A DNA stretch of 64,000 nt from Flammeovirgaceae bacterium (GTDB lineage Bacteria > Bacteroidota > Bacteroidia > Cytophagales > Cyclobacteriaceae): positions 1-64,000 of the forward strand of contig JAJTHV010000088.1 of assembly GCA_021300095.1 (NCBI GenBank), written 5' to 3'. The notes beneath the pieces were generated by a model. The model worked only from the letters and a program-made list of their open reading frames with translations. It was not told the origin of the DNA and did no database searches. Every line of letters starts with the position of its first letter. Position 1 is the first letter of the stretch. A program made the position numbers and the translations under genes. Below, piece after piece: positions 9,748 through 59,347 of this stretch.

Positions 9748-12348
9748 TTACTCTACTTTCAGCGTATCGGCCGGATTAGCGCTGGCCGTTTTTATTGTTT
9801 GAGAGGCGATCGTACCGAGCCCCAGAGAAATAAGCAAAACAATACTGATCAACACATCCCAAAAGTTTAACTGAACACTATAATACTGAATGCGTGTTAA
9901 GAACAGATCAAACAAAAATACCATGGGCACAGCCGAGAGAACAATGGCCCAAATCATTAGCTTAAGATAGTCCTTCGACAACAAAAACGTTATACTGGCC
10001 ATGCTGGCACCCATTACCTTGCGAATGCCCACTTCTTTCGCTTTTGTTTCAGAAGTATAAACCACCATGCCTAGCATGCCTAGCAGTGAAATGGTAATGG
10101 CTAACAAACCTAGGAAGCCAACCATTTTTAAGAGCACGATATACATAGAATATCCTTCGTTTAACTCCTCCTCAAAAAAGTGTGCTTTCAGCGGTAGCGC
10201 GCTTACATTTTTCCACCTTTTTTCAAAATCGGTAAACAAAGCGAAAGCATCAGTGGAGGCAACTTTTAAATTGGCATAAGCAAAGTGTGCGGGGTCATAC
10301 CGAAAAAAGAATTTGTCGATGGGCAATCGCAATGTGCCATAGTGAAAGTTTTTTACTACCCCGATGATTTCTAGTTCTTTATCATCCACTTGGTAGGTGA
10401 GACCAATGGCGTCAATAGGTTGTGAGATTTTTTCCGTCCTTAAAAACTCTTCATTTACAATAATGTACTGCTCTTGTTTCCACACCTCATCCGGAAAGTT
10501 TTTGCCAGCAAGCAGAGTAAGCCCGAAATTGTTCAGGTAGTGAGGGTCAATAAACAGCTGTGCAACTTCTGAAGAATCCTTTTCAGTGTCTTTCACCCAC
10601 GTGGTAGAGTAGCTTAGTCCGAGTACATCTGAGGACATCGATACAGCATGCACCGAGGAAAATGATTCGAATTCTGATTTAAAAAGCGAAGGATTAACAC
10701 CTTGCAATTCCACATCCACTACATTTTCTTTGGTAAATCCAAAATCAAAATTGATCGAATAGCGATACTGCCGACTGAACACAACCAGCGACAGAATGAA
10801 ACAGAATGAAAGGGCGAACTGAAATACAGTTAGCACCTTGCGCACACGCATACTGGACGAACCATTGCCAATCACTTTGCTCTTCAATGCCTGAATGGGA
10901 TTTAAGCCCGAGAAAAAGAGAGCAGGAAAAATACCGGCAAAGAATCCGGTCAACACTGCAAAAAGGACAAATAGAGAAAGAGTACGCAGCGTAAGACTTA
11001 AATCCAACGAAGAGGAAGCCACCAGCATTTGCTGAAACTCGGTGCGAATCAGAAAAAAGAGCAGCAATGACCCAAGCAATGAAATGAAGGTGATAACAAT
11101 AGTTTCTGTAATAAACTGAAAGAATATCTGTCTTTTCGCTCCGCCCATTGTTTTGCGCAAACCAATTTCTTTGGATCGCTTCAAAGCTCGGGCAATCGAG
11201 ATATTGGTATAATTAAAACATGCGGGTAGTAAGATCAATGCAGCGATAATGCCGAAGACAATCATTCCCGATGCCTCCCACTTGGGCCCTATCGCGTTGC
11301 GATAGTCGGGTCCCATGGTGATGTGATCGAGATGTTGATACTGAAATTGAACTTTAATAGGAAACGTAGCATATGTAACCTTAGCAATCTTTTGAAGATG
11401 GGATTCTACACTATGGATGTCGGCATTTTTATTCAATAAGATATACACATATTGATTTTGATAGCGGGTCCACTTTTCTTGAACAGATATTGAAGACGAT
11501 GGCAGACTGGCATAGGAAATCAAAGCCTCAAATTTGAGATGCGAGTTGATGGGGTGGTCTTTCATCACAGCAGCTATCTGCAACAATCCACCTTGTTCCG
11601 ATTCTATCGTTTTTCCAATCACATCGGCACTATTAAAAAGCTTAATGGCAGCCGATTCCGTCAAGATGATGTTATTGGGTTTTTTCAGCGCAGCTTCTCC
11701 ATCACCTTTGATCAGATCGTAACTAAAAACTTTGAAGAAATTAGGTTCCACATAATATCCCCGTAAAGGAATAGCGCCTTGCGCCATTTTTATTTCTTCA
11801 TTAAAGCCAGATTGAATTCGAACGACTTCTTCGATTTCGGGCAACGCGGCTAATTCATCGGCCAAGACTATCGGTGAGCTGGCATAGTCAAGTTCTTCAA
11901 TGCCTTCGTAGTGCGTGCTGGTAATGGTGTAGATGCGATCTTTATGGGCGTGAAAATCATCGTACGTACGCACATAGCTGACTAAAGAAATCAGCAGCAA
12001 ACTGACAGACATACCAATCGCTAATCCAAATGCATTGAGTAACGAGATATATTTGTATTGGTATACATTGCGAATGGCTACTTTAAAATAACTACGAAGC
12101 ATATCCAACGAGAAGCCGGAAGTAAATGGACTCATCTGCGAATCGCGTTTTCGTTTTCGGATTGCGTATGAGAAGAGTAAGGAGAAAACATGCTGCCAAT
12201 ATTTCCAATACGCATATCGAACGGAACGATTTTGAACATTTAGTTGAAACTGTTCGTCCAAATCACCGAGCAAGTCTTCTGTTTGAGCGTTTCCACAATA
12301 CCATTTGAAAATGGATTTGGCTAACAGTGGAGGTTGAGGCGTTTGCAT
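9748..12348 (-). CDS. FtsX-type ABC transporter permease with N-terminal prefix domain
   Basis: I start at the ATG at 12348 (866 residues), ten bases after the PadR stop; a longer frame to 12408 would overlap padR. A prefix domain (residues 1-65, FKWYCGNAQTEDLLGDLDEQF) precedes two MacB/FtsX units: a membrane helix, a large periplasmic MacB-like domain, then three-helix FtsX domains at about 350-480 and 740-860. The ends of both FtsX domains carry the typical KEIGLRKTMGG and KEVGIRKVMGA. No ATPase is encoded beside it. The PadR partner suggests ligand-induced expression, perhaps in response to envelope stress or toxic compounds. Confidence 0.88.
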   Translation of the reverse strand: MQTPQPPLLAKSIFKWYCGNAQTEDLLGDLDEQFQLNVQNRSVRYAYWKYWQHVFSLLFSYAIRKRKRDSQMSPFTSGFSLDMLRSYFKVAIRNVYQYKYISLLNAFGLAIGMSVSLLLISLVSYVRTYDDFHAHKDRIYTITSTHYEGIEELDYASSPIVLADELAALPEIEEVVRIQSGFNEEIKMAQGAIPLRGYYVEPNFFKVFSYDLIKGDGEAALKKPNNIILTESAAIKLFNSADVIGKTIESEQGGLLQIAAVMKDHPINSHLKFEALISYASLPSSSISVQEKWTRYQNQYVYILLNKNADIHSVESHLQKIAKVTYATFPIKVQFQYQHLDHITMGPDYRNAIGPKWEASGMIVFGIIAALILLPACFNYTNISIARALKRSKEIGLRKTMGGAKRQIFFQFITETIVITFISLLGSLLLFFLIRTEFQQMLVASSSLDLSLTLRTLSLFVLFAVLTGFFAGIFPALFFSGLNPIQALKSKVIGNGSSSMRVRKVLTVFQFALSFCFILSLVVFSRQYRYSINFDFGFTKENVVDVELQGVNPSLFKSEFESFSSVHAVSMSSDVLGLSYSTTWVKDTEKDSSEVAQLFIDPHYLNNFGLTLLAGKNFPDEVWKQEQYIIVNEEFLRTEKISQPIDAIGLTYQVDDKELEIIGVVKNFHYGTLRLPIDKFFFRYDPAHFAYANLKVASTDAFALFTDFEKRWKNVSALPLKAHFFEEELNEGYSMYIVLLKMVGFLGLLAITISLLGMLGMVVYTSETKAKEVGIRKVMGASMASITFLLSKDYLKLMIWAIVLSAVPMVFLFDLFLTRIQYYSVQLNFWDVLISIVLLISLGLGTIASQTIKTASANPADTLKVE

Positions 12349-12358
12349 GTGGGTCGAA

Positions 12359-12691
12359 TTAATTGTTAGATGCGGACAATTTGATTTTTGACAAGCTCCA
12401 CAATTCATCGCGCAGCATTTTGCTTTCCGTCACTGCCTTTTTACCGGCAGCGGTCACTTCATAAAAGCGTTTGCTGCGCCCTCCTCGTTCGGCTGTAGCG
12501 CCCCCCATTCGAGATTTTAAAAACCCTTTTTCTTCTAACCGCGTGATGGTGGAATGCAGCGCTCCAATGCTGATCGAACGCTTGCACCGACTTTCTATGT
12601 CGTTTTGAATGGAAACTCCATATGCTTCATCGCCCAGCGAAGCGATTGTTAACAGCACCACTTCTTCAAACTCACCCAGATACGTTTTCAT
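12359..12691 (-). CDS. PadR family transcriptional regulator
   Basis: This 110-residue winged-helix protein matches PadR: EEVVLLTIASLGDEAYGVSI, then GALHSTITRLEEKGFLKS and GGRSKRFYEVTAAGKKAV. It has a short C-terminal helix, as in the compact PadR group. It precedes an FtsX-type permease by ten bases, a pairing common in Cytophagales, and probably controls it and itself. On the minus strand TTG-N20-TATTTTTA upstream is a possible promoter. Confidence 0.9.
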   Translation of the reverse strand: MKTYLGEFEEVVLLTIASLGDEAYGVSIQNDIESRCKRSISIGALHSTITRLEEKGFLKSRMGGATAERGGRSKRFYEVTAAGKKAVTESKMLRDELWSLSKIKLSASNN

Positions 12692-12789: not shown

Positions 12790-14430
12790 TTATTTGCCCA
12801 TTAAAAACTGAAAGTCTTTTTCTAGCAGCGGATTGCTGGGGCGCTTGGCGTTTAAGTCGAAGGTTTCGCCACTGCGCGTGAGTAAGATGAATCGCGGAAT
12901 ATCCTTTACCTGATAGGTTTCGGCTAGTTTGGAATGACTGCCAATGCGGTAGTTGATAATCCCATCGGTATACAAATTGAATTTTTCTAAGGTTTGCTTC
13001 CACTTCACCTCATCATCATCCAGTGCCAGTAAAACAAACGTAACCTTGTTGCGGTACTGTTTGTGCAATCGCTTGGCCAACTCCATGTCTACCAGATACG
13101 ATTGAAAATTAGTTGACCAGAAAATTAAATACAAAATGCGATTGCCCTTGCTGTCTTCTTTCAGCCAATTGAATTTAGCTTCTCCATTTACACCGCCATC
13201 GCGCAAATTCATTTCATATTGATAATAGTGATTGAATTGATTGCTTAGCGAAGCGCCTCCACCCAAATCGCTGATGATCGCATCTTCCAATGGTGTCGTT
13301 TTTAAGATCGTGCTGCTTTTCCAATATGCGGAGTCATAAGGAATTTGAAGAAGCTCTTCACGGCCGGGAATTTTGCCTGCAAATTTTTCGGAAGCATCGT
13401 GCTTCACCTCTACGGACATCAACTCAATATGAAAAGAATGTCCCTTTTTATCTTCCGTTTGGCTTTCGCCTTCGCGAATAAAATGATACGGATAGTAGCG
13501 GTCATCATACTTGCGGTAATAGCTAATGGTACGAGTGCTATTTTCTCCGTAGGTACGAATGTCTTCTGTTTTGATGAAGGCAAACGTATCGGTAGTAATA
13601 AAAAGCGTGCCGCGTGCCATTGGTCGTTGCAAGTAATTTCCGGAGGTGGTCAGCACCGAGTCTTTCTTGTGCTCGTAATCAATTTCGTAAACTTCCAATC
13701 CATCGTAGTAGGTAATGCCGCTGCAATTGAAATCATACTTGTCAAAATCGGTGCGCAAATTGCTCACTTCGCTGTAAAACGACAGATACTCACTTTTTGC
13801 AGATGATTGATATCCGACCAGATCTGCCTGTAAAATATTGGCCACCGAAATGGGCTCATGGCCTTGTGCCATTTCGGTTTTATCCAAACTTCTGCGCAGT
13901 TGCGAAATGCGGATAGCTTCTTTTTCACCGGCAGCTTGTTGTACAGAGCGGTAACCATCGTTTTTCCATACATCAACAGCGGCTTCAATTAATCGACCGT
14001 AGGCATTATCATCTTTGCAATAATGCCGGTAAAAGTATTTTTGTAGAAAAGGTTCGGTGCTATAGTTCTTAGAGATGTTGGCAAATGCTTTTCGCATCAC
14101 GCGCCTGGCATTTACCGTCTTGTCAAGAATCACAATCGCAGTTAACTCTGTTACCATTGGCTTTAGCTCAATATGAGTAATTTCAGCAATGGAGTTGACG
14201 ATCAATGTTTCATAACCTATGCAGGTAATTTTTAAGGAGAATGGTTCGCTGATTGAAATTGAAAATTGACCCTCTATGTTAGTGCTCGTGCCCTTGGAGC
14301 TACCCACTATGCCGATGGATGCGAAGGGCACCGGTTTTCCTGTTTCTTTATCAATAATAGTGCCTTCCACCATCTGTTGGCCGAAAGAACATACACTTAT
14401 TGAGCAGAATACGAATAACCAACGTAACAT
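12790..14430 (-). CDS. Secreted protein with CarboxypepD-reg-like and thioredoxin-like domains
   Basis: The start is the ATG at 14430, giving MLRWLFVFCSISVCSFGQ as signal peptide; the frame opens earlier with a TTG that breaks the signal. Residues 20-100 form a carboxypeptidase-regulatory-like beta sandwich (GTIIDKETGKPVPFASIGI), common on Bacteroidota surface proteins. A long middle domain of unknown type follows. The last 125 residues look like a TlpA/thioredoxin fold (ILYLIFWSTNFQSYL, then YQVKDIPRFILL with the cis-proline), but the CxxC active site is absent, so it should be redox-inactive. Length is 546 residues; it is probably monocistronic. Confidence 0.78.
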   Translation of the reverse strand: MLRWLFVFCSISVCSFGQQMVEGTIIDKETGKPVPFASIGIVGSSKGTSTNIEGQFSISISEPFSLKITCIGYETLIVNSIAEITHIELKPMVTELTAIVILDKTVNARRVMRKAFANISKNYSTEPFLQKYFYRHYCKDDNAYGRLIEAAVDVWKNDGYRSVQQAAGEKEAIRISQLRRSLDKTEMAQGHEPISVANILQADLVGYQSSAKSEYLSFYSEVSNLRTDFDKYDFNCSGITYYDGLEVYEIDYEHKKDSVLTTSGNYLQRPMARGTLFITTDTFAFIKTEDIRTYGENSTRTISYYRKYDDRYYPYHFIREGESQTEDKKGHSFHIELMSVEVKHDASEKFAGKIPGREELLQIPYDSAYWKSSTILKTTPLEDAIISDLGGGASLSNQFNHYYQYEMNLRDGGVNGEAKFNWLKEDSKGNRILYLIFWSTNFQSYLVDMELAKRLHKQYRNKVTFVLLALDDDEVKWKQTLEKFNLYTDGIINYRIGSHSKLAETYQVKDIPRFILLTRSGETFDLNAKRPSNPLLEKDFQFLMGK

Positions 14431-14551
14431 TTGCAGTTGCGTCAACCGGTTTAGGTAATGGTTGCGACTGCAATTAAGAAAATGTTAAGAAACTTTCAAT
14501 TTGTTTTTATTTCAGATTCTCATGCTAACGACTGGTTGCCGAGCGATTAAG

Positions 14552-14603: not shown

Positions 14604-15863
14604 TTAATTAAAATCAATGGATTTCACGTCTTCCCACAATACATAAACCGGGTCGCTTTTGGCATTGGCAAACACCAAAACACCCTGATTTCGATCATTT
14701 ACATCTTGTGCATCTTCCAGGGTAATTTTGTTTCCGGATTTTAACTCGATACTGCAGCGATAGTCGCTGATCGGCTCTAAGCGCTTAACATCGCGAAAAG
14801 GTGTAGTTACTTCAAAATCGCCTTGTTTGCCCTGTAACAGTTCGTACGTAGATTCTTCATCCAGATCAAATACTATTTTGCCGGTGAGCGATTTTCCGTC
14901 TTTCGTCACCACTGAGCCACTGAGTGGTTTTTGCGTAGCAAACTGATCGTAGCTTGCCAATGAACCGGAGGGTTCAGAGAACGTCACTTTATCAAACTCG
15001 CGCCAAGGAACATCTACAGCGATCATATCTTTATTCATGATGATGACGCCCCGATTTCCGTTATCCACATCGTTGCTGCCTTCCATGGTCAACTCTCTGC
15101 CCGATTTCAGCTTTACGATACTGCGCCCGCCACGTCTTTCAATGGAAACGATTTTAGAAAATTCCAGCGAGATGTTTCCATCGTCAGCGTCACCGTCCAG
15201 TTTATCGGTGCTGAGACGCTCGTCATGATCCCACTGAATATATCCGGTAAACGTTTCTCCAAACGCCTCTACCTTTCCATACAAGGGAATGCCAAAGCGA
15301 TTGGAAAGTGTTTTAGGTGTTTTCATGAATTCAATTTTGCGAATTCTTCCCCAGTCCATATCCAGATCACCCATTTCCGGATCCATGATACGAATCTCTC
15401 CGCCCACATCGTTGTAGCCCTCTCCTTTCAAAGAGACTTTATCGCCATTTTGCATTTCCAGATCCACATACTTGCGACCTGAAGGAATGATTGCTTTAAT
15501 CTCACCAAACTGACAGGCAAATTGGTGTTCATAATCATTGTCATAATCGTTTCGTTTATCGCCCCAGTTGCCAAACCAGCGGTACCAATTGTTGTTGTTC
15601 CAATTGTCCCATGTGTTTTGTCGATCGTCCAATTTGTCGCGATCGCGCGATGAGAGGTAGCGTAAATTCTGATTTCGCTCTTTACCCGCATTGAAAATGT
15701 CTGTCCAGTACACTTCTTCCTTTCCCCAGCGTATGGGGCCCTCATACACCTTGTTATCGATGGTGTAAACTTTTCCGTAGATGAATCCTTCATCCTGAGC
15801 GTTGGCACTGAATACAACTAGAACAGTCAGAATCAGCACACATGTTTTGGTAAATAATCGCAT
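14604..15863 (-). CDS. Secreted triple-repeat protein A of the LytTR locus
   Basis: The 419 residues start with a signal peptide (MRLFTKTCVLILTVLVVFSANA). Three related beta-rich units follow (about 25-180, 188-305, 312-419). Each pairs a G-x-I-x-W/F-D-x-D-E-like strand (GPIRWGKEEVYW, GYIQWDHDE, GKIVFDLDE) with a later unit of the pattern LKSG...DV-(N/D)-x-x-N-x-G-V ending in a W-(R/E)-x-(F/V). The first repeat has an Asn/Trp/Asp-rich insertion near residue 85. I recognise no named family. It is a paralogue of the gene at 17774-19012 and closes the two-component locus. Phased direct repeats lie 69-99 bases upstream. Confidence 0.75.
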   Translation of the reverse strand: MRLFTKTCVLILTVLVVFSANAQDEGFIYGKVYTIDNKVYEGPIRWGKEEVYWTDIFNAGKERNQNLRYLSSRDRDKLDDRQNTWDNWNNNNWYRWFGNWGDKRNDYDNDYEHQFACQFGEIKAIIPSGRKYVDLEMQNGDKVSLKGEGYNDVGGEIRIMDPEMGDLDMDWGRIRKIEFMKTPKTLSNRFGIPLYGKVEAFGETFTGYIQWDHDERLSTDKLDGDADDGNISLEFSKIVSIERRGGRSIVKLKSGRELTMEGSNDVDNGNRGVIIMNKDMIAVDVPWREFDKVTFSEPSGSLASYDQFATQKPLSGSVVTKDGKSLTGKIVFDLDEESTYELLQGKQGDFEVTTPFRDVKRLEPISDYRCSIELKSGNKITLEDAQDVNDRNQGVLVFANAKSDPVYVLWEDVKSIDFN

Positions 15864-15931
15864 AGCAAATGTTTTGTTTGAATGATGATACGAATAACGG
15901 CTAATGCGAGTGGGCGGGGAAGGAGAGTCTA

Positions 15932-15962
15932 CCGAATCGTAAGTACGACTGACTGAATCGGG
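15932..15962 (-). promoter_or_regulatory. Putative LytTR operator, phased direct repeat
   Basis: On the minus strand CCCGATTCAG (15962-15953) is followed by the weaker copy TACGATTCGG (15941-15932), with a 21-base period. It lies 69 bases upstream of secreted protein A. The same core occurs at the same distance before its paralogue. LytTR regulators typically bind two direct repeats two helical turns apart. Confidence 0.6.
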
Positions 15963-15982
15963 ATAAAACGGCTCTCAATTAT

Positions 15983-16741
15983 TTACTGATCGATCCAGCT
16001 TTTAAATTCCGGTGTGCGTTCAGCCGAAATCACCACTTCTTCTGTTGTGGCAGGTACGAGATGAAGTTTGATTCTTCCTTTAAAATACGGATGGATTTCT
16101 GCGATGCTTTGAAAGGTAACGATGAACTGGCGGTTGGCCCGAAAGAAGATTTGCGGATCGAGCACTTCGATCAGCTCATCCAGCGGTTGATCCATGGGAA
16201 ATCGTTTTTGATCGGTAGTAACTGCGAAAGAAAGTTTGTTTTCACTGAAGAAGTAGGCAATCTTCTCTACAGGCACGGCTACAATCTTTTGCCCGATGCG
16301 AATCATAAACCGCGACTTGTATTGTTTTTGTGATGCCTGCAATTCTTTCGCCAGCGCCCGGTAGTCAATTTGATTGGCTGTTGGTTTCGTGCGACTTTTT
16401 ACTTTTTCGATCGCTGCCGCTAATTTTTCTATTTGAATAGGCTTCAGCAAGTAATCAATGCTGTTCACCTCAAACGCTTTGATAGCATATTGATCGTAAG
16501 CGGTAGTGAAAATGACAGGCACTTCTGTTTTTACATTTTGAAAGATGTCGAAGCACAATCCATCCAACAACCGGATGTCTGAAATGATCAGATCGGGATG
16601 CGGATTTGAACTCAACCATACGGTGCTTGCTTCAATGGATTTGAGATGACCCACTATTTCCAGTAAAGGATCGATAGTGCCCAGCAGTTGCTGCAATCGC
16701 TCAGCGGCTAAGGTTTCATCTTCAATCAGCAATACTTTCAT
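15983..16741 (-). CDS. LytTR family response regulator
   Basis: The 252 residues comprise a receiver domain (1-120) with acidic pocket EDE (7-9), phosphoacceptor Asp55 in IISDIRL, FTTAYD and Lys101 in LLKPI, followed by a LytTR DNA-binding domain (about 150-250: FMIRIGQKIVAVPVEKI, then FFRANRQFIV). LytTR domains bind phased direct repeats, and two such repeats flank this locus. It begins nine bases after the sensor kinase stop, so the pair is co-transcribed. Confidence 0.95.
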   Translation of the reverse strand: MKVLLIEDETLAAERLQQLLGTIDPLLEIVGHLKSIEASTVWLSSNPHPDLIISDIRLLDGLCFDIFQNVKTEVPVIFTTAYDQYAIKAFEVNSIDYLLKPIQIEKLAAAIEKVKSRTKPTANQIDYRALAKELQASQKQYKSRFMIRIGQKIVAVPVEKIAYFFSENKLSFAVTTDQKRFPMDQPLDELIEVLDPQIFFRANRQFIVTFQSIAEIHPYFKGRIKLHLVPATTEEVVISAERTPEFKSWIDQ

Positions 16742-16750
16742 TTTCTTCTT

Positions 16751-17764
16751 TTAGTAATAACCCACTTCCAGCAGTGGAATGTGGACCTCAAAGTAACTTT
16801 CGGTTTTACGGATTTCTACTTTCAGATCCGTAAAATGTGCATAGCGCTGTTCAATATTTTTGAGTCCGCTGCCGTGATTTTCGGATGGATCATTCGGTTT
16901 TGCAAACAAACTATTTCGCACCAGCAAATGGGTTTCGCTGGCTCCCACTTCGATGGTGAGCGGCCGCGCATCGGTAATCAAATTGTGTTTGATGGCGTTT
17001 TCGATCAGCATTTGTAGCGTGAGCGGTGGGATCATTTTATTTCGTGTATGCTTATCCAAATTAACGGTAAACCGGATGTGGTTTTCAAACCGAATATGGA
17101 TTAAATACATGTAACTCTCAATGAAGGAAAGCTCATTGTACACCGGAATCAGGTCATCGGATTTGGTGTTCAGCATCGTGCGATACACCTCGGCAAATTT
17201 GGCAATAAACTTTTTGGACGTGTCCGAATCTTTATCAATCAGCGAAGAGAGGATATTCAGGTTGTTGAAAAGAAAGTGTGGGTCGAGGTGGTTTTTGAGC
17301 GAATCCAATTGTGCTCGCATTGATTCTTTTTGGCTTTTTGCAGCTTCCAGTTCAGAAGTGCGCCAGTGACGGAGGAAGTGCAAACTGAAATACAATGAAA
17401 AGGCAGGAATAAAAATGGCGGCACCCCACACATTCATCACAGTAAATTGTTCACGCGTAGGCGGGTCGTCTGTTAAAAAAACTTTGATGGCATAATAAAT
17501 TCCATTGACCAGCAACAGTAAATACGCAAGTCCCAACACGAGCTGAATGAAGAAACGCCAATTTCCATATTTGCTCCACGGTAAAATTTTATCTAGGCGT
17601 AATGTCAATTGACGATTTCCGAACCAAAGCAACAGCGCAATCACAATCAGCCAACCCGTAGTGAAATAGAAAATGGGCCCCGGCTCTACAAAAAACCAAA
17701 CAACAGCCATCACCAATAGCCCGATGCCTGCAATAACTCCAATGCGGATGAATGATTTTTTCAC
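16751..17764 (-). CDS. LytS/YehU-type sensor histidine kinase
   Basis: This 337-residue kinase has four membrane helices in the first 130 residues, a short coiled linker, then a His_kinase domain with the phosphoacceptor in LDPHFLFNNLN (His163), the N box MLIENAIKHN and the G box HGSGLKNIEQRY. Little of it lies outside the membrane, so the signal is probably sensed in the bilayer or passed from a partner, perhaps one of the flanking secreted proteins. The start codon is GTG at 17764; no nearer ATG fits. It lies nine bases after secreted protein B and nine before the response regulator. Confidence 0.93.
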   Translation of the reverse strand: MKKSFIRIGVIAGIGLLVMAVVWFFVEPGPIFYFTTGWLIVIALLLWFGNRQLTLRLDKILPWSKYGNWRFFIQLVLGLAYLLLLVNGIYYAIKVFLTDDPPTREQFTVMNVWGAAIFIPAFSLYFSLHFLRHWRTSELEAAKSQKESMRAQLDSLKNHLDPHFLFNNLNILSSLIDKDSDTSKKFIAKFAEVYRTMLNTKSDDLIPVYNELSFIESYMYLIHIRFENHIRFTVNLDKHTRNKMIPPLTLQMLIENAIKHNLITDARPLTIEVGASETHLLVRNSLFAKPNDPSENHGSGLKNIEQRYAHFTDLKVEIRKTESYFEVHIPLLEVGYY

Positions 17765-17773
17765 ACCGTAAGA

Positions 17774-19012
17774 TTACTTGAAAATAATCTCATTTACTTT
17801 TCTCCATGCTATATGCACCGGATCTTTTTTACCTGCACGGAAAAGCAAAATACCACTGTTGTCTTCCGATACATCGCGCATGCCGCCTAACAACAACCGC
17901 TGACCGGATTTTAATTCTATTTCTGAGTAATCGAAATTTTTTGGTGTAATGCGGGCAATTAATCGAATGGGAATCTGATACTCAATATCATTTTCTTTTC
18001 CTTCAATCATTTCGAAATCCAACGCTTCATCTACGTCATAGATAATTCTTCCAGACATTTCGCCACCGTCAACCAGCGAAACAGTCGCTTCCATGGGCAC
18101 GGGTGCCGGAAAATTACTGTAGGCTTGTCCTGTGCCGGGAGGAGGCGAGAATGTAATTTTTCGAAAAGCCTTCCATGAAAACTTGATAACACCAAATTCG
18201 GGGCTGATCACCCACACACCGCGGTTGCCACTGTCCACATCATTCGAATCGTCTAGAAATTGGGTGCGGCCTGAGCGTAAGGTTACATCGCAGCCGTCAT
18301 CTCTTTTTTCGATGGCTGATATCTCAGAGAATTTAATGGAGACATCACCATCGCGGGTATCGCCATCCAGTTTGTCGGATGAAAGGCGCTCATCATTATC
18401 CCACACGATGTAGCCGGTATAACTTTCTCTGCGTCCGCCCTGCACGGTGCCATACAAAGGTTGGCCAAACACCTGATCTAATTTTGCAGGCGTATTTAAA
18501 AACTCAATGCGCTGAATGCGATCCCAATTGATATTGATGGTGCCAAGCTCTTCATCCAGAATTTGTACTTTACTTCCAAGGTCGTTGTAGCCTTCTCCAT
18601 CTACACGCATCTCGCCACCATTCTTAAGCTTCAAGGTGATGTCATCTTCATTACCAACAATGATTTCTTTCAGGTTTCCAAATTGGCAGGTAAACTGATG
18701 AATACTTCCTTTGTTTTGCCAGATGCTTTCAAATGACCAATCGTAATTCGACCACCACTCTTTGTTTTCTTTTTCTTTGGGGATCAGTTTGGCGTAATCG
18801 TTATCGCGTTTAGCTGCGTTGAACATGTCTGTCCAGAAAACTTCTTCACCACCCCACCTAATCGGTCCTATGTACGTGGCGCGGTCGGTATATACTTTGG
18901 CATACATGTATCCTTCGTGTGACTGTGCAGGTGCAACGGTGGCCATCGCCAGAAAGGCAACGATCAATCCGATCACTACAACTACGGTTTTAAAAATGCT
19001 TTTTGATTCCAT
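17774..19012 (-). CDS. Secreted triple-repeat protein B of the LytTR locus
   Basis: The ATG at 19012 gives a signal peptide or N-terminal anchor (MESKSIFKTVVVVIGLIVAF); the frame's earlier TTG is not needed. The 412-residue protein aligns along its length with secreted protein A: GPIRWGGEEVFWTDMFNAAK, GYIVWDNDERLSSDKLDGD, then repeated LKSG and DVDSGNRGV/DVSEDNSGI units, making three beta-rich repeats. It is the first gene of the operon with the kinase and regulator. Family and function are unknown; a surface or periplasmic role tied to the sensor is inferred. A perfect -7 element and a phased repeat lie upstream. Confidence 0.75.
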   Translation of the reverse strand: MESKSIFKTVVVVIGLIVAFLAMATVAPAQSHEGYMYAKVYTDRATYIGPIRWGGEEVFWTDMFNAAKRDNDYAKLIPKEKENKEWWSNYDWSFESIWQNKGSIHQFTCQFGNLKEIIVGNEDDITLKLKNGGEMRVDGEGYNDLGSKVQILDEELGTININWDRIQRIEFLNTPAKLDQVFGQPLYGTVQGGRRESYTGYIVWDNDERLSSDKLDGDTRDGDVSIKFSEISAIEKRDDGCDVTLRSGRTQFLDDSNDVDSGNRGVWVISPEFGVIKFSWKAFRKITFSPPPGTGQAYSNFPAPVPMEATVSLVDGGEMSGRIIYDVDEALDFEMIEGKENDIEYQIPIRLIARITPKNFDYSEIELKSGQRLLLGGMRDVSEDNSGILLFRAGKKDPVHIAWRKVNEIIFK

Positions 19013-19064
19013 GCTTGCGTATACGCGTTCGATGCCCAAAGTTGATAAAGATTAGGGCTATGGC

Positions 19065-19072
19065 CAAAGATA
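19065..19072 (-). promoter_or_regulatory. -7 element of the LytTR operon
   Basis: TATCTTTG matches TANNTTTG exactly. No -33 TTTG sits at the right distance; the phased repeat occupies that place instead, as expected for an activator-dependent promoter. Confidence 0.55.
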
Positions 19073-19078
19073 GCCAAC

Positions 19079-19109
19079 CTGAATCGGGCGATAATTGCGC
19101 TGAATCGGG
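19079..19109 (-). promoter_or_regulatory. Putative LytTR operator, perfect phased direct repeat
   Basis: CCCGATTCAG occurs twice on the minus strand (19109-19100 and 19088-19079) with a period of exactly 21 bases. It begins six bases upstream of the -7 element and 67 bases upstream of the secreted protein B start. Confidence 0.65.
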
Positions 19110-19110
19110 A

Positions 19111-19992
19111 TCACTCCACCTTCCTCCACAAAGGCCGAGTCAGGCAAGTGGGGCCTCCGCCTCCTTTGTAACTTATTTCGGTGCCATCGTATTCCAGCAC
19201 CGTACAACTGGCTTGTTGCAGTCGCTCTTTCGTAAGATCATTTCCCTTCACCATGAGGCAATGTCGCGGGGCAATGGCCAACACGTTGCAGCCCATGGAT
19301 TCAAACTCGGCATCGGGTACTTCAATTAACTGATAGCCACGAGCAATCAAATCTTCGCGAAACACAATCGGCATGAGCGGAGAGTAAACCACCGCTAAAT
19401 CTTTATCTACCGGACTGAAGATGGACATGAGGTGAAAAACATCAGATGAACCTTTGTAGTGCGGAAGTTGAACTTCCACCACGCTTACGCCACATGGCGC
19501 AAGTAAGGCACGCATTTGACGAATTCCTTCAGCATTGGTCCGATACGTTCTTCCGATTGCCAGCGTATTTTGGTCTAGCCACGCCACATCGCCACCTTCT
19601 ACCGTGCCGGGCGATTCTATTTTTCCTAAGACAGGGATGCCGGCTTTTTCATAGACTTTCAATGCAGCCGAGGGCTCGTTCAAGCGTCCGGCTTTTCCCA
19701 TTCGGCAAATGATGATTCCTTTGTCGGTGGCGATACTGGCATCGCGACAATACATGCTGTCCATTGTTACGGTAGCATCCGCTTCAAAATGATGAATATC
19801 AGGATTGGTAGTGCGCAATAATTTTTCGAAGTGATGGTATTCATTTTGAGCTTCCTGAAAATCAGGCTCGCTTAAGAAGTTGAGCTCTTGCCATTGCTGG
19901 CGAATGGTGGTGGCATCAACAAAAGCATCGGCTGCTTTTTTGATAAACACACTTTGAAGTGTTCCGTATTCGGATTGACAGGTGAGGTTCAT
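19111..19992 (-). CDS. Amidinotransferase-fold hydrolase (dimethylargininase-like)
   Basis: The 293 residues fit the guanidine-modifying enzyme superfamily: YCRDASI, MGKAGR, EGGDVAWL, the catalytic histidine in SDVFHLMS, and the nucleophile in GGPTCLTRPL near the C-terminus. Dimethylargininase (citrulline from methylated arginine) and arginine deiminase-like activity are the closest options; substrate cannot be set from sequence. It follows an APC-family transporter by 52 bases on the same strand, suggesting uptake and breakdown of an arginine derivative. Its stop abuts the LytTR operator of the next operon. Confidence 0.85.
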   Translation of the reverse strand: MNLTCQSEYGTLQSVFIKKAADAFVDATTIRQQWQELNFLSEPDFQEAQNEYHHFEKLLRTTNPDIHHFEADATVTMDSMYCRDASIATDKGIIICRMGKAGRLNEPSAALKVYEKAGIPVLGKIESPGTVEGGDVAWLDQNTLAIGRTYRTNAEGIRQMRALLAPCGVSVVEVQLPHYKGSSDVFHLMSIFSPVDKDLAVVYSPLMPIVFREDLIARGYQLIEVPDAEFESMGCNVLAIAPRHCLMVKGNDLTKERLQQASCTVLEYDGTEISYKGGGGPTCLTRPLWRKVE

Positions 19993-57876: not shown

Positions 57877-57907
57877 GTATTCAGTGAATTAAGTGAGTGA
57901 AGCAAAT

Positions 57908-59347
57908 TTATTTGTTGTCAGTAGGAATAGGTGGAGGCCCTTCGGGAATATACGGTTTATAAACAAAGGTGCCTTTGCGCTTTTCAAATTCGGCACGAAT
58001 GTCCTTACGCAACTGCTCGTTTTCAAAAAGATCTACCATGGTCATCGCCAATGATTTGGAAGCAAGGATAAGGCCTTTGTGCCCGATGCTCATGCCACCG
58101 CAGGCTACTACACTCCATCCGTGCCAGGCTGTATTTTTTGGAGCGGTAGTTGCGACTAGCGTGATCTCCGGTACAAGCCAGCTTACATCGCCCACATCGG
58201 TAGAACCTCCCACCGGATGTTCAAGCGTTTCTCGGAGCGGGTAAATTTTTCCATCCAACTCAGCTATTTTTCCACCTTGCTCTTGTTGAATTTTTTGTGC
58301 GAATGCTTGCTCTTCGGGTGTGTAAGTGATCGGGCCGAGAATTTCTAAATTCTTTTGTAAGACACCGGCCCCTGTGCGATTGACCAGAATTTCATAGTCG
58401 CCTGCTTGCACCGTTACTTTCGCCTCTACTCCGGCAATCATCCCTGCACCTTGGGCAATTTCTTTGACGCGCGTGAAAACCTCATCTACACCGGTTCGCT
58501 GACTATCACGCACCCACATCCAAACTTTGGCATACTCGGGCACCACATTGGGAACATCGCCACCCGCTTTGATCGCATAATGCATGCGCACACTTGGCCG
58601 CACGTGTTCTCGCAATAAATTCACGCCAAATGTAAATGCTTCGAGGGCATCTACCGCACTGCGACCATTCCATGGGTCGGCAGCCGCATGCGCTGCTTTG
58701 CCCTTAAACTCAACTACAAAATCTACCATGGCTTGAGAGCTTTGTGTGCTGGCGCCAATTTCAACATCCGGATGCCAATCCAGGCAAACATCCAAATCGT
58801 TGAAGAGACCTTCGCGAGCCATATATACTTTTCCGCCTACCGACTCTTCGGCCGGGGTTCCATAAAACCGAATAGTGCCTTTTAATTTTCCTTGTGCGAT
58901 CAAATCCTTAATAGCGATGGCAGCACCTAAACTACTGGCACCAAACAGATTATGACCACAACCATGTCCGGCAGCACCTTTTTCTAAAGATTCTTTGGTA
59001 GGACTCGCTTTTTGCGAAATACCAGGCAGGGCATCGTATTCGCCCATAATGCCAATGATCGGTTTGCCGGAGCCGTATTCGGCAATAAAAGCAGTGGGTA
59101 AACCGGCAACACCCCTTGTCACACGGAACCCTTGGGCTTGGGCATAGTCAGCCAATTCTTTGGAGGATTTATGTTCGCGCAAAGCAGTTTCGGCATAGGC
59201 CCAGATTTTATCACTGATGGCGATCAGGTCGGCCTGATGTTTTTCTACGGATTGAATGACAGCTGATTTATTGGGATTTAGTTTTTTAGTCTGCGCCTGT
59301 GTTGAAATGGTGGCGATAATCAAAAGAAGAATGAGGGCGAGGCGCAT
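57908..59347 (-). CDS. Secreted M20 amidohydrolase (AbgB-like)
   Basis: I start at the ATG at 59347, which begins a signal peptide (MRLALILLLIIATISTQAQ); the longer upstream frame has none. The 479 residues have M20 metal-site motifs GEYDALPG, AGHGCGHNLFGA and TPAEESVGGK. The closest fit is p-aminobenzoyl-glutamate hydrolase subunit B or related amidases. It lies between the S9 peptidase and a divergent lipoprotein; a different M20D enzyme is at 25431-26738. Confidence 0.9.
   Translation of the reverse strand: MRLALILLLIIATISTQAQTKKLNPNKSAVIQSVEKHQADLIAISDKIWAYAETALREHKSSKELADYAQAQGFRVTRGVAGLPTAFIAEYGSGKPIIGIMGEYDALPGISQKASPTKESLEKGAAGHGCGHNLFGASSLGAAIAIKDLIAQGKLKGTIRFYGTPAEESVGGKVYMAREGLFNDLDVCLDWHPDVEIGASTQSSQAMVDFVVEFKGKAAHAAADPWNGRSAVDALEAFTFGVNLLREHVRPSVRMHYAIKAGGDVPNVVPEYAKVWMWVRDSQRTGVDEVFTRVKEIAQGAGMIAGVEAKVTVQAGDYEILVNRTGAGVLQKNLEILGPITYTPEEQAFAQKIQQEQGGKIAELDGKIYPLRETLEHPVGGSTDVGDVSWLVPEITLVATTAPKNTAWHGWSVVACGGMSIGHKGLILASKSLAMTMVDLFENEQLRKDIRAEFEKRKGTFVYKPYIPEGPPPIPTDNK

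What the first reader, a model, noticed from the sequence alone, without database searches (positions are those of the whole stretch)
14604..19109. Closed LytTR two-component locus with duplicated secreted triple-repeat proteins
Gene order is secreted protein B, LytS-type kinase (9-base gap), LytTR regulator (9-base gap), secreted protein A. A and B are paralogues with three beta-rich repeats and no family I recognise. Each has the same phased operator at the same distance (67 and 69 bases) from its start. This looks like a sensory circuit in which the regulator controls the secreted proteins and perhaps its own operon. The secreted pair may be the sensor's ligand-binding or effector part.
Basis: partly seen in the sequence, partly recalled or inferred. 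Interest (0 to 1): 0.8.

Follow-up and report, generated by a model that had tools for sequence, protein, structure and literature searches.

The report
Self-activating kinase circuit with secreted proteins
Some environmental Bacteroidota carry a small self-contained signalling circuit in which a membrane kinase and its regulator appear to switch on their own operon and two related, previously unnamed secreted proteins, one of which was not found apart from the kinase in the genomes searched.

Summary
A and B are 40% identical secreted paralogues of three repeats each, with no Pfam or NCBIfam family above cut-off and no PDB sequence relative. Of 76 loci (75 fetched plus the window), 42 carry P-kinase-regulator and 36 of these also B. 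In a draw of 390 genomes of the order, the kinase orthologue (359 bits or more; next match 288) occurs in 26, each time directly after a P gene, and was not found in the 361 genomes without the family. The operator, TCCCGATTCAGT half-sites 21 bp apart, recurs before A and B and is phased to the promoter, as expected of a LytTR activator; in the window's genome exact tandem sites occur only at A and B. B relatives also occur without the kinase: most that keep the operator lie in genomes with A-kinase-regulator elsewhere; many others carry a different promoter motif. Best reading: a positively autoregulated LytTR two-component system, with A its dedicated extracytoplasmic partner and B an effector. 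The regulatory part is well supported; the roles of A and B are inference. A new secreted family in a known kind of system.

The parts
17774..19012 (-). secreted protein A, 412 aa, signal segment plus three beta repeats; first gene of the operon
   Evidence: kinase-linked across relatives
16751..17764 (-). sensor histidine kinase, 337 aa, PF06580; three hydrophobic segments by hydropathy and a probable fourth by eye, no large extracytoplasmic domain; short loop with K-x3-T-x2-PP-x3-Q
15983..16741 (-). response regulator with receiver and LytTR DNA-binding domain, 252 aa
14604..15863 (-). secreted protein B, 419 aa, paralogue of A, with its own operator
19078..19110 (-). operator of A: half-sites 19099-19110 and 19078-19089, 21 bp apart
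15931..15963 (-). operator of B: half-sites 15952-15963 and 15931-15942, 21 bp apart
19037..19068 (-). probable promoter of A, read by eye: TTTG (19065-19068), 20-base spacer, CAACTTTG (19037-19044); an alternative -7 box TATCTTTG lies at 19065-19072
   Evidence: sequence; the box starts 33, not 32, bases after the half-site, so the window's A is not among the exact-phase promoters; no box of 5 of 6 matches at 32 or 53 was found for the window's B

Best explanation
This is a LytTR two-component system with positive feedback and a tiny regulon. Shown by sequence and conservation: A, kinase and regulator stay together, and half-sites of TCCCGATTCAGT at 21-bp steps lie upstream of the promoter of the A-kinase-regulator operon and of B. 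Inferred from that geometry: the phosphorylated regulator binds the repeats on one face of the DNA next to the -33 element and recruits RNA polymerase, so that a signal raises kinase, regulator, A and B together. Inferred from gene content: the kinase, which has little outside the membrane except a short conserved loop, uses A, exported across the membrane, as its dedicated partner (co-sensor or feedback subunit), while B, a copy that can leave the locus and whose relatives come under other promoters, is an effector that can work without the kinase. The signal is unknown; envelope state is my guess.
For: Linkage: 42 of 76 loci carry P-kinase-regulator, 36 of them with B, one B being a fragment (L024) and some cut by contig ends. 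Kinase orthologues in 26 of 390 genomes, each directly after a P gene by the coordinates, none found in the 361 genomes without P, with a gap from 359 to 288 bits; 15 of the 26 have one P only (two of these in pieces), so A-kinase-regulator is the core. Tree: A rows were defined by the kinase behind them; the 40 so defined are one side of a branch, SH-aLRT 99, with no lone copy among them. Operator above 8 bits in 40 of 41 A and 33 of 36 B upstreams (near-copies L011 and L012 included) against 9 of 166 coding controls and 2-3% of shuffles (the matrix was trained on A and B sites, so these counts are partly circular). Not circular: of 90 offsets the two best for a second half-site are -21 and +21, in both A and B; TAnnTTTG (5 of 6 or better) lies 32 or 53 (32+21) bases after the half-site in 18 of 38 A and 20 of 31 B promoters, against a mean of 1.15 and 0.71 promoters for other offset pairs. 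Unlinked copies: of 24 genomes examined, 8 of 9 with a lone copy scoring above 8 bits have a second P, against 1 of 15 below; in all 9 two-P genomes the other copy is followed by kinase and regulator (two of these are L022 and L047 again). Kinase loop motif, with loose spacing, in 37 of 40. A's export segments are more membrane-like than B's (median hydropathy 2.21 v 1.62, p 6e-6) and 25 of 40 hold a GxxxA/G motif against 0 of 63 B and lone rows.
Against: No experiment. Activation, not repression, is inferred from position, and the window's own two promoters do not show the box at the exact phase. The co-variation test for the membrane part of the kinase is contradictory: partial correlation 0.00 for A and 0.44 for B over 32 loci, but 0.32 for A and 0.14 for B in the 24 loci outside Saprospiraceae. 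The GxxxA/G pattern was chosen after looking, is absent from all 10 Saprospiraceae A rows and from the 13 single-copy rows, and A's segment ends in a plausible signal-peptidase site (by eye). In 8 of 14 kinase-linked single-copy loci the best operator score is under 8 bits (one start badly picked), so the regulator's specificity has drifted or the matrix is too narrow. The closed regulon rests on two genomes: two-mismatch sites in the window's genome outnumber the control (13 v 3), and in G015 the A and B promoters are not among the hits while two other places have one mismatch. With single-copy rows added, three lone long-branch rows lie beside the kinase-linked group. The genome searches scored only the best few candidates per genome. 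Loci are related, so counts are not independent; three lone loci (L030, L043, L050) lie near a contig end.
Confidence: 0.5

Rival explanations
1. A and B are both plain effectors made in two doses; the kinase senses its signal by itself through its membrane helices and short loop, and A's place in the operon only tunes expression.
For: A and B share sequence and repeats; the kinase loop is itself strongly conserved; the co-variation test does not single out A.
Against: In the genomes searched the kinase was not found apart from a P gene and no lone copy falls in the A branch, whereas B relatives occur without the kinase.
Confidence: 0.3
2. A is an inhibitory feedback protein, induced by the circuit and acting back on the kinase, as CpxP does on CpxA (comparison recalled, not from a call).
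For: A is exported, is in the operon it would control, and is tied to the kinase.
Against: Nothing here tells activation from inhibition; no link to CpxP was tested.
Confidence: 0.15
3. The regulator is a repressor that blocks both promoters.
For: In the window an alternative -7 box TATCTTTG lies 5 bases after the A operator, which would put the repeats over the -33 region (sequence; offset 5 is seen in 4 of 38 A promoters).
Against: The common arrangement puts the half-sites one or two steps upstream of the -33 element, as in the LytTR activators of PMC6193735 (passages read).
Confidence: 0.08

Closest known systems
LytS/LytTR-type two-component systems (BtsS/BtsR; PMC10653868, search listing and start of abstract seen only)
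   Same: PF06580-type kinase and receiver-LytTR regulator in one operon (that BtsS/BtsR have these domains is recalled)
   Different: no LytS 5TM receptor domain listed for the kinase; linked to secreted repeat proteins of no family in the libraries searched
LytTR Regulatory Systems, LRS (PMC6193735, passages read)
   Same: positive autoregulation through direct repeats 11-13 bp apart placed about 10 bp upstream of the promoter; the paper lists Bacteroides repeats TCCGGTATTCA-11 bp-ACCGGAAATCA before TGTA-19 bp-TATCTTTG
   Different: LRS have a LytTR regulator held by a membrane inhibitor; here there is a receiver domain and a histidine kinase
Cpx with its periplasmic CpxP (recalled)
   Same: a kinase circuit that makes its own exported partner, if A acts on the kinase
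   Different: other kinase and regulator families (recalled); the interaction is unproved here and no link to CpxP was tested
C-terminal beta domain of HsiE/TagJ and VPA1032 (4uqy, 1zbp)
   Same: best fold matches of one repeat: 4uqy Z 7.5, 2.5 A over 94 residues; 1zbp Z 6.3; then AgrA LytTR domains at Z 4.4-4.0 and Sm-like barrels at Z 3-4
   Different: Z below 8, no Foldseek match under E 1e-3, no sequence match; a lead on fold only

Membership tests
LytTR two-component system | response regulator with receiver and LytTR DNA-binding domains | tested here: met
   PF00072 48 bits, PF04397 65 bits, both over cut-off
LytTR two-component system | PF06580 kinase in the same operon | tested here: met
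   9-base gaps; histidine, N and G boxes conserved in 40 kinases
LytTR two-component system | direct-repeat operator with about 21 bp between half-sites | tested here: met
LytTR two-component system | phosphotransfer and DNA binding | not testable with these tools
   needs purified proteins
LytS subgroup with 5TM receptor (5TMR_LYT) | 5TMR_LYT domain in the kinase | tested here: not met
   not among the six families listed for the kinase at E up to 1
LytTR Regulatory System (LRS) | LytTR regulator controlled by a membrane inhibitor, without phosphorelay | tested here: not met
   receiver domain and kinase present
LytTR Regulatory System (LRS) | repeats just upstream of the operon's own promoter | tested here: met
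   across the loci, compared with passages of PMC6193735; less clear in the window's own promoters
HsiE/ImpE C-terminal fold | shared fold of a single repeat | tested here: inconclusive
   Z 7.5 over 94 residues, under the level of 8 that the tool's note warns about

The most novel reading that the evidence does not exclude
A three-part sensory system of Cytophagales and Saprospiraceae: a kinase stripped of its sensor domain, its LytTR regulator, and an exported array of small beta barrels (A) that serves as the detachable sensor; duplication gave B, which acts as an effector and whose relatives were rewired to other promoters in other Bacteroidota.
Probability: 0.3. Interest if true: 0.7.

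Novelty: new variant of a known kind. Interest (0 to 1): 0.55.

Why it matters
It gives a two-component system whose regulon can be read off the genome, with a defined operator, in a phylum for which my searches found little on LytTR two-component systems. It also points to a secreted family without annotation and offers a clean question: whether a kinase with no sensor domain borrows one from a separately exported protein.

Tried and rejected
Defence system: PADLOC gave only one weak match, of the regulator. Phage link: no viral contig matched the six short patterns drawn from A. Link of the family with MacB/FtsX permeases: 18 of 34 lone loci hold one on the locus, but these permeases are very common (15 to at least 136 MacB_PCD matches in each of 9 genomes) and the loci fall in few lineages, so I keep it as a lead. 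Fold search of A and of its middle repeat: nothing under E 1e-3; A as a whole gave HsiE at Z 7.9 over 99 residues; rows such as sliding clamps and DFPase were set aside for TM-scores near 0.1. Lipoprotein: a loose pattern fits 2 of 103 rows, probably chance. Mirror-tree test of A or B with the kinase: contradictory. Regulon search: the 13 two-mismatch sites in the window's genome were read: 11 lie in stop-free frames of 749 bases or more, and one pair (contig C205, 9.0 and 13.3 bits) is stronger than the rest; the other 12 have a half-site of 2.6 bits or less. Literature: no paper held LytTR with Saprospiraceae or all of LytTR, Bacteroidetes, histidine kinase and operator; the rows listed (20 of 103, 8 of 8, 15 of 17) name nothing on this locus in their titles. 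PMC10197871 was opened for its LytTR passages and is not about it. The secreted family has no name to search by.

Rows dropped before counts: L011 and L012 (98% copies of the window) from the matrix training, phasing counts, tree and kinase alignments; L018 B, L024 B and L060 from alignment A3, and L069 and L070 as near-copies; L052 A from the operator counts (too little upstream); 21 rows of the first tree and two new ones (L218, L221) from the second. The 24 genomes were chosen from 34 lone loci, leaving out 10, mostly near-copies. In the trees the label 'loneop' was set by eye: it includes L066 (7.2 bits) and leaves out L050 (10.0 bits); the counts in this report use the 8-bit threshold. 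Start codons in the loci were picked by script and some are doubtful (L018 B, L060, L209, L218).
Full report
What is there. Four minus-strand genes, transcribed A, kinase, regulator, B. Gaps are 9, 9 and 119 bases. The kinase has a PF06580 domain and the regulator a receiver and a LytTR domain. A and B are paralogues of 412 and 419 residues with signal segments, 40% identical, with three repeats each, confirmed by profile comparison. They match no Pfam or NCBIfam family above cut-off, and no PDB sequence convincingly.

Do the genes stay together? A scan of named genomes confirmed 130 stretches, kept the best 80 and gave 75 loci. With the window that makes 76: 42 hold P-kinase-regulator on one strand, 36 of them with B behind (one a fragment), and 34 hold a lone P. 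Of the 6 cassettes without B, 2 have 1.2 kb or less behind the regulator and 4 have about 4 kb without it. In 390 genomes of the window's order 29 have the family, and the kinase orthologue (359 bits or more; the next listed match has 288) is in 26. By the coordinates of the two calls all 26 kinases follow a P gene directly, and all 26 genomes are among the 29; the handles show the same draw. Eleven of the 26 have two P genes; 15 have one, counting G216 and G221, where one gene is in pieces, as one. Both searches scored only the best few candidates per genome. In 395 genomes of the phylum 5 have the family. In the window's own genus it is patchy: 3 of 25 genomes, the window's included.

Two kinds of P. 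I called a copy A if a kinase follows it and B if the regulator precedes it. In a tree of 103 rows the 40 A rows are one side of a branch (SH-aLRT 99), and the 32 B and 31 lone rows are the other. With 13 single-copy, kinase-linked rows added these lie next to A, with three lone rows, two on very long branches, among them. The trees are unrooted and quick, so I do not claim which came first.

The operator. A matrix trained on A and B upstreams reads TCCCGATTCAGT. It exceeds 8 bits in 40 of 41 A and 33 of 36 B upstreams, 9 of 34 lone ones, 9 of 166 coding controls and 2-3% of shuffles. A second half-site is found best at exactly 21 bp on either side. Some Roseivirga B promoters show a third step when read by eye. 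TAnnTTTG, the -7 box of Bacteroidota (motif recalled; a box of that form is in the table of PMC6193735), lies 32 or 53 bases downstream in 18 of 38 A and 20 of 31 B promoters, where other offset pairs average 1.15 and 0.71. The window's A has a box one base off this phase and the window's B none of 5 of 6 matches. The geometry is that which PMC6193735 reports for LytTR activators with positive feedback (passages read). In the window's genome the exact tandem site occurs only before A and B, and in the sister species G011 the sites with 0 or 1 mismatch are again A and B only. This is not general: two-mismatch sites in the window's genome exceed the control (13 v 3), and in G015 and G204 none of the hits listed is at a P gene. 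The 13 were read and 12 have a weak half-site. In 8 of 14 kinase-linked single-copy loci the matrix finds nothing above 8 bits.

A natural test. Of 24 genomes of lone copies searched whole, 9 hold a second P and 15 do not. Lone copies with an operator above 8 bits are in two-P genomes in 8 of 9 cases, those below in 1 of 15; the exceptions are L050 (10.0 bits, one P) and L066 (7.2 bits, two P). In all 9 two-P genomes the other copy is followed by kinase and regulator, with an operator above 8 bits in 8 of 9 (two are the loci L022 and L047 seen before). So B can leave the locus and keep its operator when the regulator is in the genome. Lone copies without the operator carry other signals: GTAAC-N14-17-CGTC, which looks like a promoter of an ECF sigma factor (recalled), in 16 of 34 lone and 0 of 74 A and B upstreams, and AAGTACT in 3 lone ones. 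These motifs were picked after looking, 11 of the 16 are close relatives in Marinifilaceae, and L050 is among the 16.

The proteins. The model of A has mean pLDDT 90.7 and is nearly all beta after the signal segment; one repeat alone gives 91.4. Fold searches found nothing under E 1e-3. The best aligned chains for one repeat are HsiE/TagJ and VPA1032 (Z 6.3 to 7.5), clear of the next row (AgrA LytTR domain, 4.4) but below 8. Hydropathy gives the kinase three hydrophobic segments, a fourth is likely by eye, and there is no large outside domain; the loop before the last carries a K-T-PP-Q motif (loose spacing) in 37 of 40 cassette kinases, and by eye not in the two other kinases aligned with them. 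A's export segment is more membrane-like than B's, and 25 of 40 hold GxxxA/G against 0 of 63 others, but not in the Saprospiraceae rows or the single-copy rows, and the pattern was picked after looking.

How it most likely works. The signal reaches the kinase at the membrane, the regulator is phosphorylated, binds the stepped repeats beside the two promoters and raises its own operon and B. A is the likely outside partner of the kinase because the two were found together without exception in the genomes searched; B is the likely effector because its relatives can live under other control. The mirror-tree test did not settle A against B. The regulatory part I hold at about 0.85; A as kinase partner, as co-sensor or inhibitor together, at about 0.45.

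Novelty. The kinase-regulator pair and its feedback belong to a known kind. The secreted family, its tie to a sensor-poor kinase, and the rewired lone copies were not found in the libraries and paper searches used here.

Noticed in passing
9748-12691: A MacB/FtsX-type permease (9748-12408; MacB_PCD match) overlapped by a gene that looks like a PadR regulator by eye (12359-12691, not searched), 2 kb downstream of B; the genome has 66 MacB_PCD matches.
   Followed up: partly
L067, L069, L070, L072, L073, L076, L078, L080, L082, L083, L085: Lone P in Marinifilum and Labilibaculum follows two FtsX-type permeases and an ABC ATPase; in 10 of the 11 a protein of about 1,900 aa lies behind it, and the one scanned had no Pfam match.
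   Followed up: partly
L027, L048, L050, L061, L084 and the Marinifilaceae loci: Lone P genes carry GTAAC-N14-17-CGTC, an ECF-like promoter motif, instead of the LytTR operator; no chance control was run.
   Followed up: partly
L024:9216-9592: B is reduced to a short fragment while a strong operator half-site remains upstream.
   Followed up: no
L062:5127-5927: The regulator gene of this cassette is split over two frames; may be a sequencing error or a broken gene.
   Followed up: no
19111-19992: Arginine deiminase / dimethylargininase-like gene directly upstream of A, also there in the sister species L013.
   Followed up: no
12790-14445: Protein with CarboxypepD_reg-like and thioredoxin-like domains downstream of B, also in L013.
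   Followed up: no
G000:C430:52925-52953 and 57903-57931: Two nearly identical 21-bp stepped repeats of CGCTTC[AG]GT 5 kb apart, perhaps the operator of another LytTR regulator.
   Followed up: no
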